Of a DNA stretch of 64,000 nt, positions 15,435-18,081 are shown one piece after another. Source of the DNA: Halogeometricum pallidum JCM 14848 (GTDB lineage: Archaea > Halobacteriota > Halobacteria > Halobacteriales > Haloferacaceae). The stretch covers positions 1-64,000 of the forward strand of contig NZ_AOIV01000045.1 in assembly GCF_000337095.1 (NCBI RefSeq), given 5' to 3'. The notes under the pieces are model-generated. The model was not told where the DNA came from. It saw only the letters and a program-made list of their open reading frames with translations, and did no database searches. The position numbers were made by a program, and so were the translations under genes. Numbering within the stretch: position 1 is the first letter of the stretch; each line of letters starts with the position of its first letter.

Positions 15435-15767
15435 CTACTTGTTGCGGTGGCCGAGCGGTTTCTTCTGTTCGACCTCTATCTCGACGTGCAGGCTCTCGGG
15501 GAAGTCCATGTGGCCCACCTCGCGGGCGATGTGGTCGTTTCCGTGTATCTCCAGTTTCCGGGAGTAGACGGTGTAGTCCCACGAGGAGAACTCGTCGCCC
15601 GGGGCGAGGTTTCGGTACTGCGGGACGGTGTGGTGCTCCGTCGGGGCGGCGTGCGGCCCCTTGCACTCGGCGCCCTTGCGTTCGATCATCTCCTGCAGGT
15701 CGGACAGTTGGTCCTCCAGTTCGTAGCGATTCCCGCTTTGGAACGTGAGTTTGGTTACGAAGGTCAT
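15435..15767 (-). CDS. uS10/mL48-like ribosomal protein-related protein
   Basis: This 110-residue protein resembles ribosomal protein S10: a first strand MTFVTKLTF, a helix rich in Glu/Gln, then the GP-x-x-x-PT motif in CKGPHAAPTEHHTVPQY, and a strand-helix-strand end with SRKLEIHGND and SLHVEIEVEQKKPLG. It lacks S10's usual ribosomal-operon setting and stands alone, so it is a paralogue of uncertain role. The frame continues 25 codons upstream, but ATG 15767 gives the S10-like start. A palindromic A-rich element gcgtaaaaacgc at 15803-15814 lies about 40 bases upstream and may hold the promoter. Confidence 0.75.
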   Translation of the reverse strand: MTFVTKLTFQSGNRYELEDQLSDLQEMIERKGAECKGPHAAPTEHHTVPQYRNLAPGDEFSSWDYTVYSRKLEIHGNDHIAREVGHMDFPESLHVEIEVEQKKPLGHRNK

Positions 15768-15898
15768 GGCTGGGTGCGCGTAGGACGTGAGAGGATACCG
15801 AGGCGTAAAAACGCACCTACACGTCGTCTCCGTGCCGTTCACTCACGTCCCCCGACTGATGAACGGACGCGCGAAGCCGCTACAGGCACCGATAGCCT

Positions 15899-15927: not shown

Positions 15928-16401
15928 ATGCCAGTGCAAGCGGTGAGCGCTGGAGCCATCCTCTTCCGCGACACCCGCGGCCGAAGGGAGTACTTGCTCC
16001 TGAAGAGCCGACCGGGGGACTGGGAGTTCCCCAAAGGCGGGGTCGAAGGGAAAGAGGAACTCCAGCAGACTGCCATCCGCGAGGTCAAAGAGGAGGCGGG
16101 CATCGAAGAGTTCCGCCTCGTCGACGGCTTCCGCGAAGATTACGACTACGTGTTCGAGGCGAACGGGAAGACCATCCACAAGACGGTACACCTGTTCATC
16201 GCCCGGTCGTTCGAGGCCAGCGCCGAACTGTCGACCGAGCACCGCGACCTCCAGTGGCGCGACTACGAACAGGCGCTCAACACCATCACGCAGGACGGGC
16301 CGAGAAACATCCTGAAGAAGGCCCACCAGTACCTCGACGACGTCGCCAGCGACGGCGACGGCGACGACGACGAGGAGGGCTCCCGCCAGTACCTCGCCTG
16401 A
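15928..16401 (+). CDS. Nudix hydrolase (Ap4A-hydrolase-like)
   Basis: This 157-residue enzyme has a complete Nudix box. It begins with GGVEGKEELQQTAIREVKEE and continues AGIEE, with the catalytic REVKEE glutamates intact, near residues 37-61. The preceding DWEFPKGG and following FREDYDYVFEANGKTIHKTV resemble diadenosine-tetraphosphate hydrolases, which cleave nucleotide polyphosphates. Substrate specificity cannot be decided here. A 20-residue acidic tail (DGDGDDDEEGS) is probably a halophilic extension. The gene is leaderless by promoter position and is followed 143 bases later by the nuclease-like gene on the same strand. Confidence 0.93.
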   Translation: MPVQAVSAGAILFRDTRGRREYLLLKSRPGDWEFPKGGVEGKEELQQTAIREVKEEAGIEEFRLVDGFREDYDYVFEANGKTIHKTVHLFIARSFEASAELSTEHRDLQWRDYEQALNTITQDGPRNILKKAHQYLDDVASDGDGDDDEEGSRQYLA

Positions 16402-16544: not shown

Positions 16545-17585
16545 GTGTACCCCGGAGACGCCGAGTTCGGCTTCGAGTTGCTCGTCTGTCGGTGGGCCGA
16601 GGAAGCGTGGCCCCCAGACGGAGAACGGAGCGAGGACGGGAGCGCCGTCCTCGTCGCCCGGCAACTCGGCACCAAGCGGCGGCGCTGGGACACCGTCGTC
16701 GTCGAGTGTGACCCGGCCGGACTGACGGCGCGCGCGCGCTTCGGCGACCGCGAACTCGACTCGGACCTCCTGCACGTCGTCCGTAACGCGCCCGCGGAGT
16801 GGGCGTGGTACCGCGACGCCCTGCCGCACCCCGGCTACCCGTGGCGCTACGTCCGCGCCGCCGTCCACCGCGCGGCCGGGCGCGGGGTCGTGGAGAAGCG
16901 CCGACGCGGCAACCGCATCGAGATTCGCCGCGTCGCGCCCTACCCCGATTGGGTGCGGCGCATCGTGGCCATAGAGAACAAGCCTGACCTCGACGCGTCG
17001 GCGGCGCGCGCCCTCTCTGACCAACTCACGCGCGACGTCGAGGACGCCCTCGCCGACGAGGTGTGGGTGGCGACGCACGCGACCGGGAACCGGGTCGAAC
17101 CCGCCCTCCTCGAAGACGTGCCCGTCGAAGTCGGCATCCTCGCCTTCGCGTTCGACGCCGACGCGCCCGGCGAGGGGTGGGCCGACGCCGCCGTCGAGTG
17201 GCACCCGAGCGACGTGACGCCGCCGGACGCGGAGAGCGACGAGGAGCGACGGACGACGCGCCTCGAACTCGCCGAACGCGCCTACGGGTCCGGTTGGCGC
17301 TCGTACCACGATACGATGCGTCCGGACTGCCGGCACTTCGAACTCCGGCGGTTCGGCCGCGCCCTCGTGCCCCACTGTGCGGCGAAGGAGCGGTCGCAGA
17401 CGGCCGCCGAGTGCGCCGGGTCCTGCCCGGAGTTCGAACCGGAACCGCCCGTCTGGCGCACCCGCGGGTGGCCCATCGAGGGCGGCCCGGGAAAGGGTAT
17501 CAAGCGTCTCCTCGGCGACCGGCGAACACGGGTCAGAGAGTGCGAGGCCGCCGCCGAGGGGAAAGAGCGACCGTTCAGTCGGTGA
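16545..17585 (+). CDS. DUF5787-like protein, predicted PD-(D/E)xK-type nuclease with cysteine cluster
   Basis: This 346-residue protein starts at GTG 16545 (VYPGDAEFGFELLVCRW), matching how I remember DUF5787 proteins beginning. Residues 48-56 (WDTVVVECD) and 140-150 (IVAIENKPDLD, with the E-x-K triad part E144-N-K146), followed by Q160-L (SDQLTRDV), have the order and spacing of the RecB/Cas4-type nuclease core. After a Glu-rich linker come four cysteines, C262, C278, C290 and C294 (DCRHFE, PHCAAKE, ECAGSCPEF), that could bind Fe-S or zinc. Nuclease activity is an inference. The frame is open far upstream but lacks sense there. It overlaps the convergent downstream gene by 11 bases. Confidence 0.8.
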   Translation: MYPGDAEFGFELLVCRWAEEAWPPDGERSEDGSAVLVARQLGTKRRRWDTVVVECDPAGLTARARFGDRELDSDLLHVVRNAPAEWAWYRDALPHPGYPWRYVRAAVHRAAGRGVVEKRRRGNRIEIRRVAPYPDWVRRIVAIENKPDLDASAARALSDQLTRDVEDALADEVWVATHATGNRVEPALLEDVPVEVGILAFAFDADAPGEGWADAAVEWHPSDVTPPDAESDEERRTTRLELAERAYGSGWRSYHDTMRPDCRHFELRRFGRALVPHCAAKERSQTAAECAGSCPEFEPEPPVWRTRGWPIEGGPGKGIKRLLGDRRTRVRECEAAAEGKERPFSR

Positions 17586-18081
17586 CTTCCACGTCGACTT
17601 CGTCGCGTTCGACGGCGAGGCGGAACGTCGGAACGGTCCGATAGACGACTTCGACGACGCCCTTCCGACGGAGGCTCTGGAGGGCGCGGCGGACCTCGTC
17701 GACCTCCGGGTCGGCGTCGTACGCCTCGCGGACCTTGTTCAACACGCTGACGACGCTCTCGGAGCGTTCGTCCGGTCCGGCGAGCACCTCGAACACCCGC
17801 GCTTCGAGGGCGGGCACGCGGATGACCGACGGTACCCCTCCCTCCTCCGCGTCGTCCACCTCGACGCCGGGTTCGACGTCGACCAACTCGGCGGCGTCGG
17901 CCGTCGCGCGGATGAGGCTGTTGTCGTCGCGGTAGTAGTACTCCTTCAGTTCGTTCTCGAGGTACTGGTGCACCTCGCTGCCGGACTCCAACCCCCAGCT
18001 ATCTTGCAACTCCTTGTTCTTCGTCGGTTGGAGACGGACGACGTCCGCCAACCGTTCTTTCGCCTTCTCAGAGAGGGTCAT
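17575..18081 (-). CDS. winged-helix domain protein, DUF5797-like
   Basis: This 168-residue soluble protein has an N-terminal helix-turn-helix-like part (MTLSEKAKERLADVVRLQPT, then a GSEVHQYLENELKEYYY segment). A variable middle follows, and a C-terminal winged-helix pattern: VDEVRRALQSLRRKGVVEVVY, written here only in part as DEVRRALQSLRRKGVVEVV. I recall haloarchaeal relatives as DUF5797. DNA binding is plausible but the regulon is unknown. A TATA-like box on the minus strand at 18103-18111 (taatagac region) supports ATG 18081. Its 3' end overlaps the nuclease-like gene by 11 bases. Confidence 0.8.
   Translation of the reverse strand: MTLSEKAKERLADVVRLQPTKNKELQDSWGLESGSEVHQYLENELKEYYYRDDNSLIRATADAAELVDVEPGVEVDDAEEGGVPSVIRVPALEARVFEVLAGPDERSESVVSVLNKVREAYDADPEVDEVRRALQSLRRKGVVEVVYRTVPTFRLAVERDEVDVEVTD

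What the first reader, a model, noticed from the sequence alone, without database searches (positions are those of the whole stretch)
16545..17585. DUF5787-like protein looks like a RecB/Cas4-type nuclease with a C-terminal four-cysteine cluster
Seen in sequence: W-D in WDTVVVECD, then IVAIENKPDLD (E144-x-K146), then Q160-L 14 residues after the K. This is the usual D ... E-x-K ... Q-L order of RecB/Cas4-like PD-(D/E)xK nucleases. Cysteines at 262, 278, 290 and 294 follow in the C-terminal part, as expected for an Fe-S or zinc site, and another Cys lies near the N terminus (C15), which recalls the one-plus-three cysteine plan of Cas4/AddB. I know of no stated function for this family. It is a single gene next to a Nudix hydrolase and a winged-helix protein, with no cas gene near.
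Basis: partly seen in the sequence, partly recalled or inferred. Interest (0 to 1): 0.6.

Follow-up and report, generated by a model that had tools for sequence, protein, structure and literature searches.

The report
Haloarchaeal paralogous PD-(D/E)xK nuclease pair
Nearly every salt-loving archaeon carries two sister copies of an unstudied protein that looks like a DNA-cutting enzyme, and the sister of the gene found here ends in the standard tag for docking on the replication clamp PCNA, which points to an overlooked DNA-maintenance enzyme pair.

Summary
The 346-aa DUF5787 protein (PF19100, E 1e-107) has every residue listed at the stated number. D49, E144, K146, Q160 and C262/C278/C290/C294 are invariant in 77/77 homologues spanning two paralogous clades. 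AlphaFold gives the alpha-beta-beta-beta-alpha-beta order of a PD-(D/E)xK core, with D49, E144xK146 and Q160 where they should be. Structure matches are weak but recurrently fall on PD-(D/E)xK nucleases.

The RecB/Cas4 label is not supported. C15 is replaceable, all four invariant cysteines are C-terminal, RecB's QhxxY reads QLxxD, no His is invariant, and profile comparison with Cas4, NucS and PDDEXK_1 finds nothing.

It is also not a lone gene. Nearly all haloarchaea carry two paralogues, A (the window gene) and B. In 43 of 44 B copies the C-terminus is a canonical PCNA-binding box (QxGLDRF), almost identical to that of haloarchaeal Fen1 (QTGLDQWT). Haloarchaeal NucS (0/20) and paralogue A lack it.

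Best reading: a haloarchaeal chromosomal PD-(D/E)xK DNA-nuclease family, with B clamp-tethered and A recruited differently. Activity and substrate are inferred, not shown.

The parts
16545..17585 (+). DUF5787 paralogue A, 346 aa, GTG start: predicted PD-(D/E)xK nuclease
   Evidence: (PF19100 E 1e-107)
16563..16607 (+). N-terminal helix (residues 7-21) with invariant E7, E11, E19; candidate active-site Glu of helix alpha-A
   Evidence: helix in AF2 model; invariance in 77/77; role inferred from Hjc/NucS-type nucleases (own knowledge)
16689..16691 (+). D49, predicted metal-binding Asp on strand 47-55
   Evidence: invariant 77/77; strand in model
16713..16934 (+). Residues 57-130: winged-helix DNA-binding domain inserted between the D strand and the ExK strand
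   Evidence: AF2 H57-66 H73-81 H89-92 H100-112 E116-121 E124-129; Foldseek matches of 75-80 columns to ArsR-type winged helices, prob up to 0.99, with the 1-224 model
16974..16982 (+). E144-N145-K146, the ExK motif at the end of strand 137-145
   Evidence: invariant 77/77
17022..17024 (+). Q160, conserved Gln in the helix (151-167) after the ExK strand; D164 four residues on is invariant too
17328..17426 (+). C-terminal Cys4 module C262-x15-C278-x11-C290-x3-C294 (Zn or Fe-S site, inferred)
   Evidence: all four Cys 77/77; modelled with moderate to low confidence
17439..17492 (+). A-specific conserved tail PEPPxWRTRGWPIEGGPG (residues 299-316), in the place where paralogue B leads to a PIP box
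15928..16401 (+). Nudix hydrolase gene directly upstream; conserved neighbour
   Evidence: PF00293 E 2.5e-18; found beside A in 92 of 100 loci
15435..15842 (-). Divergent ribosomal-protein-S10-like gene; conserved neighbour
   Evidence: PF00338 E 8e-11; 89 of 100 loci
17575..18081 (-). DUF5797 winged-helix protein, convergent, overlapping the end of A
   Evidence: PF19110 E 2.8e-84; 66 of 100 loci

Best explanation
DUF5787 is a haloarchaeal chromosomal family of metal-dependent DNA nucleases of the PD-(D/E)xK superfamily. SHOWN BY SEQUENCE OR COMPUTATION: the invariant D - ExK - Q signature, the core strand and helix order in the predicted model, a winged helix inserted between the D strand and the ExK strand, an invariant C-terminal Cys4 module, two paralogous clades (A and B) in nearly every haloarchaeal genome, and a canonical PCNA-binding box at the C-terminus of B. 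INFERRED: D49 and E144 (with one of E7/E11/E19) bind Mg/Mn and K146 positions the attacking water. The winged helix holds double-stranded or branched DNA beside the active site. The four Cys bind a structural Zn or Fe-S centre. B is tethered to PCNA and cuts DNA during replication-coupled repair or processing. A, the gene in this window, works on DNA with the same chemistry but is brought to its substrate by its own better-conserved winged helix and its conserved WRTRGWPIEGGPG tail rather than by PCNA.
For: The eight catalytic and Cys residues are invariant in 77/77 across two clades that are only about 31-37% identical. AF2 pLDDT is 80 (full length) and 86 (residues 1-224), with D49, ExK and Q160 at the classical positions. 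Foldseek matches recurrently to PD-(D/E)xK proteins: PaqCI (prob 0.60 full length; 0.72 over 232 columns with the 1-224 model), EcoO109I, MmcB-like repair proteins, herpesvirus UL24, T7-type endonuclease I; and to ArsR-type winged helices (prob 0.99). Distribution is core-genome: two copies in all 52 haloarchaeal genomes that match in the phylum sample, none in phages or IMG/VR, no convincing PADLOC match, one megaplasmid hit. PIP box: 40/40 then 43/44 B copies match Q-x-x-L-x-x-[FYW] at the C-terminus, against 8/3179 ORFs of background. Haloarchaeal Fen1, 12/12, carries the near-identical Q[TS][GS]LxxW. The published PIP consensus is QXXhXXaa (PMC4929162), and archaeal PIPs lie at the very C-terminus (PMC6881253). 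In B the winged helix is much less conserved than the core (48% against 73% mean identity); in A the two are close (61% against 67%).
Against: No Foldseek hit to the PDB reaches E 0.001 (best 0.03), and the single BFVD hit below 0.001 has no function. No sequence or profile search reaches a known nuclease family. The alignment for AF2 held A orthologues only, so the model is of moderate depth, and the Cys module is its least certain part. No activity, substrate, metal or PCNA binding has been measured, and no paper in the library names DUF5787. The neighbours (Nudix, S10-like, TFS; eIF2-gamma and Rpb7 for B) do not point to DNA repair.
Confidence: 0.72

Rival explanations
1. It is a Cas4/AddB/Dna2-type Fe-S ('iron staple') RecB nuclease that happens to lie outside cas loci, i.e. 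a solo-Cas4.
For: ExK and Gln order; Cys present N-terminally (C15) and C-terminally.
Against: C15 is Ser or Ala in 7/77 while four C-terminal Cys are 77/77; Cys spacing is 15-11-3 and not 2-5; QhxxY is QLxxD; no invariant His for RecB motif I. HHalign probability against haloarchaeal Cas4 and PDDEXK_1 is below 1%.
Confidence: 0.05
2. The nuclease acts on RNA rather than DNA, in transcription- or translation-linked RNA processing.
For: A sits by a Nudix hydrolase, an S10-like protein and TFS; B sits by eIF2-gamma, Rpb7 and TsaD.
Against: B's C-terminal PCNA box and the inserted ArsR-like winged helix both point to DNA; housekeeping neighbours are common around any core gene.
Confidence: 0.12
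3. A catalytically dead or purely regulatory DNA-binding protein: the winged helix is the working part and the nuclease fold is a scaffold (as in RecC or some regulators).
For: Winged-helix matches are the strongest Foldseek hits of the 1-224 model, and in A the recognition-helix region is as conserved as the core (69%).
Against: D49, E144, K146 and Q160 are invariant in 77/77 in both clades, whereas inactivated nuclease domains typically lose these residues.
Confidence: 0.11

Closest known systems
NucS/EndoMS (PF01939), archaeal PCNA-binding nuclease
   Same: PD-(D/E)xK-type D - ExK - Q logic; in Pyrococcus abyssi it docks on PCNA by a C-terminal PIP box (PMC4929162), as B is predicted to do.
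   Different: No detectable profile similarity; NucS has an N-terminal OB/Sm-like domain and no inserted winged helix or Cys4 module. Haloarchaeal NucS lacks the PIP box in 20/20 sampled.
Cas4 / AddB / Dna2 Fe-S RecB nucleases (PF01930, PF12705)
   Same: ExK catalytic motif, conserved Gln after it, four conserved Cys.
   Different: Cysteine plan, QhxxY and motif-I His are not met; no profile match.
MmcB-like DNA repair proteins, UL24, T7-type endonuclease I and type IIS restriction enzyme PaqCI (PD-(D/E)xK folds)
   Same: Recurrent fold matches of the model.
   Different: All weak in E-value (about 0.05-0.5); none is known to me to combine a winged helix between the D and ExK strands with a C-terminal Cys4 module (own knowledge).
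Fen1 of haloarchaea
   Same: Its C-terminal PIP box QTGLDQWT is almost the same as B's QSGLDRF.
   Different: Unrelated nuclease family; only the docking tag is shared.
NreA, haloarchaeal PCNA-dependent repair factor
   Same: Archaeal protein family with a C-terminal PIP box needed for repair in Haloferax volcanii (PMC4929162).
   Different: A different protein family without known biochemical activity; named only as a precedent for the genetic test.

Membership tests
DUF5787 (PF19100) | Pfam gathering score (25 bits) | tested here: met
   360.4 bits for A; 315.1 for B
PD-(D/E)xK nuclease superfamily | Conserved D ... (D/E)xK in order | tested here: met
   D49, E144, K146 invariant 77/77
PD-(D/E)xK nuclease superfamily | alpha-beta-beta-beta-alpha-beta core with D and ExK on strands 2 and 3 | tested here: met
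   Secondary-structure order of the AF2 models: H7-21, E34-42, E47-55, insert, E137-145, H151-167, E172-178, E196-203. Coordinates could not be superposed residue by residue.
PD-(D/E)xK nuclease superfamily | Significant structural match to a solved member | tested here: inconclusive
   Best PDB nuclease is PaqCI: E 0.08 and prob 0.60 with the full model; prob 0.72 over 232 columns with the 1-224 model; none below 0.001
PD-(D/E)xK nuclease superfamily | Metal-dependent nuclease activity lost on mutation of D/E/K | not testable with these tools
   needs purified protein
RecB-like / Cas4 (PF01930, PF12705) | Profile similarity to the family | tested here: not met
   HHalign probability below 1%; no Pfam hit in 16 members
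RecB-like / Cas4 (PF01930, PF12705) | QhxxY motif | tested here: not met
   Q160-L-x-x-D164, D invariant
RecB-like / Cas4 (PF01930, PF12705) | One N-terminal plus three C-terminal cluster Cys | tested here: not met
   four invariant Cys all C-terminal, spacing 15-11-3; C15 replaceable
NucS/EndoMS (PF01939) | Profile similarity | tested here: not met
   HHalign probability 0.3%
PCNA-interacting proteins, paralogue B | C-terminal QxxhxxA(A) box | tested here: met
   43/44 B copies; background 8/3179 ORFs
PCNA-interacting proteins, paralogue A (window gene) | C-terminal QxxhxxA(A) box | tested here: not met
   none among the 57 A C-termini listed
PCNA-interacting proteins, paralogue B | Physical binding to PCNA | not testable with these tools
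   needs peptide binding or co-purification

The most novel reading that the evidence does not exclude
DUF5787 is an undescribed, near-universal haloarchaeal genome-maintenance nuclease system: an ancient pair of PD-(D/E)xK enzymes with an inserted winged helix and a Cys4 module, in which B is a PCNA-tethered nuclease that may fill in haloarchaea the clamp-coupled role that NucS has elsewhere (haloarchaeal NucS lacks the PIP box), and A is its untethered partner.
Probability: 0.35. Interest if true: 0.8.

Novelty: new variant of a known kind. Interest (0 to 1): 0.58.

Why it matters
Haloarchaea, Haloferax volcanii among them, are main genetic models for archaeal DNA replication and repair, yet this family of unknown function sits as two conserved copies in almost all of them. 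If B is a clamp-bound nuclease, the list of archaeal PCNA clients gains a new enzyme, and the way haloarchaea process damaged or branched DNA becomes directly testable. The absence of the PIP box from haloarchaeal NucS adds a concrete question: has the clamp-coupled nuclease job moved from NucS to DUF5787-B?

Tried and rejected
Sequence search of the PDB with the A+B profile: four chance hits only. Pfam, NCBIfam, PADLOC and PHROGs at permissive thresholds: nothing beyond DUF5787 that most members share; the weak DUF7140 match over the Cys module (3 of 16 members, E 0.09) was not followed. HHalign against locally built Cas4, NucS, PDDEXK_1 and a Fen1 control: no signal, and no better than the control. 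IMG/VR, phage and plasmid searches: no viral homologue, one Natronorubrum megaplasmid copy, so a defence or mobile-element reading was dropped. A weak PF19100 hit outside the order (G273) proved to be the zinc region of methionyl-tRNA synthetase.

Full report
OBSERVATION. The reported reading frame is exact: window 16545-17585, plus strand, 346 residues from a GTG start. Pfam places the protein in DUF5787 (PF19100, E 1e-107), a family of unknown function; no paper in the library mentions it.

CONSERVATION. A search of 60 related genomes found a match in 55, mostly two per genome: an orthologue of the window gene (A, 52-92% identity) and a second, diverged copy (B, about 31-44% over the matched parts). 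The family model finds two copies in all 52 haloarchaeal genomes that matched in the 295-genome phylum sample, and nothing convincing outside the order (the one weak outside hit is the zinc region of a methionyl-tRNA synthetase). A tree separates A from B with full support, and each clade broadly follows host families, so the duplication is old. A few families of the order lack both (f2, f9, f11), and two incomplete f15 genomes show B only.

They are D49, E144, K146, Q160, C262, C278, C290 and C294. C15 is not invariant: Ser or Ala in 7 of 77. Further invariant acidic residues lie in the first helix (E7, E11, E19), where Hjc- and NucS-type nucleases keep an active-site Glu (own knowledge).

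FOLD. AlphaFold2 with 56 A orthologues from named genomes gives pLDDT 80 and pTM 0.77, and pLDDT 86 for residues 1-224 alone. Both models agree: helix 7-21 (9-21 in the short model), strand 34-42, strand 47-55 carrying D49, then strand 137-145 ending in E144-N-K146, helix 151-167 carrying Q160, and strands 172-178 and 196-203. That is the order of a PD-(D/E)xK core. Residues 57-130 between the D strand and the ExK strand form a winged helix: with the 1-224 model, the best PDB matches are ArsR-type winged helices (prob up to 0.99 over 76 columns). Matches to nucleases are weak in E-value but recur in the superfamily: PaqCI (prob 0.60 full length; 0.72 over 232 columns with the 1-224 model) and EcoO109I; MmcB-like repair proteins, UL24 and T7-type endonuclease I among viral models. 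No PDB hit passes 0.001, so the fold assignment rests on topology plus motif plus recurrence, not on one significant match.

THE CAS4 IDEA. [quoted passage not shown] PMC4176176). Here all four invariant Cys are C-terminal, with spacing C-x15-C-x11-C-x3-C; the QhxxY position reads QLxxD; no His is invariant; and HHalign to haloarchaeal Cas4, PDDEXK_1 or NucS finds nothing. So it works like a PD-(D/E)xK nuclease, but it is not a member of the RecB/Cas4 family by the features tested. The Cys4 module could hold Zn or an Fe-S centre; the evidence does not decide.

THE SISTER GENE AND PCNA. The B paralogue ends, nearly always at its last residues, in a motif close to Q-[ASTV]-G-L-D-[RQ]-[FY]. All 40 of the first B copies match Q-x-x-L-x-x-[FYW], and 43 of 44 after adding deeper lineages (the remaining one ends in a degenerate QMHLGDGW). 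Among 3179 ORFs from A loci only 8 have a loose match in their last 20 residues. The consensus equals the published PIP motif QXXhXXaa (PMC4929162), archaeal PIPs lie at the very C-terminus (PMC6881253), and Fen1 in these genomes ends in the near-identical QTGLDQWT or close variants, 12 of 12. Paralogue A has no such box. Haloarchaeal NucS has none either in 20 of 20, although Pyrococcus abyssi NucS does (PMC4929162). PCNA binding of B is therefore a strong prediction, not a demonstrated fact.

DIVISION OF LABOUR. In matched sets from 20 genomes, the catalytic part of B (strand 3 to strand 5) is better conserved than that of A (73% against 67%), while the winged helix is better conserved in A (61% against 48%; recognition-helix region 69% against 44%). 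A also keeps a tail of its own, PEPPxWRTRGWPIEGGPG. This fits B being aimed by the clamp and A by its own DNA-binding domain or another partner. This step is inference.

SURROUNDINGS. A lies in a conserved chromosomal block: S10-like gene, Nudix hydrolase, A, then DUF5797 on the other strand, with TFS farther on. B lies by eIF2-gamma, Rpb7, DUF359 and TsaD in most genomes. Homologues are absent from phage records and IMG/VR, and present in one megaplasmid only; no defence family of PADLOC matches convincingly. So it is core-genome housekeeping rather than defence. The neighbours are mostly transcription and translation genes, which keeps an RNA substrate alive as a rival.

VERDICT. My estimates: nuclease fold about 0.85, active nuclease about 0.75, PCNA binding of B about 0.85, DNA-repair or replication role of A about 0.5.

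Noticed in passing
window 15435-15842 (-): Divergent ribosomal protein S10-like gene (PF00338 E 8e-11; the archaeal uS10 model scores 34 bits, cut-off 96), found in 89 of 100 A loci; a conserved S10-like protein of unknown role.
   Followed up: partly
loci L194-L213 (NucS of related haloarchaea): Haloarchaeal NucS has no C-terminal PIP box in 20 of 20, ending instead at EFVSLEP or in an acidic tail, although P. abyssi NucS binds PCNA through one.
   Followed up: partly
genomes G049 and G339 (family f15), G036/G043/G045/G052/G058 (families f2, f9, f11): f15 genomes (76-78% complete) show only paralogue B; f2, f9 and f11 show neither, which may date the origin or loss of the pair.
   Followed up: no
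window 17575-18081 (-): DUF5797 winged-helix protein converges on and overlaps the end of the DUF5787-A gene by 11 bases; found in 66 of 100 A loci.
   Followed up: partly
L031:1144-9000 and B loci generally: Paralogue B lies next to eIF2-gamma, Rpb7, DUF359 and TsaD on one side and a metallo-beta-lactamase-fold protein and an AAA ATPase on the other in most genomes.
   Followed up: partly
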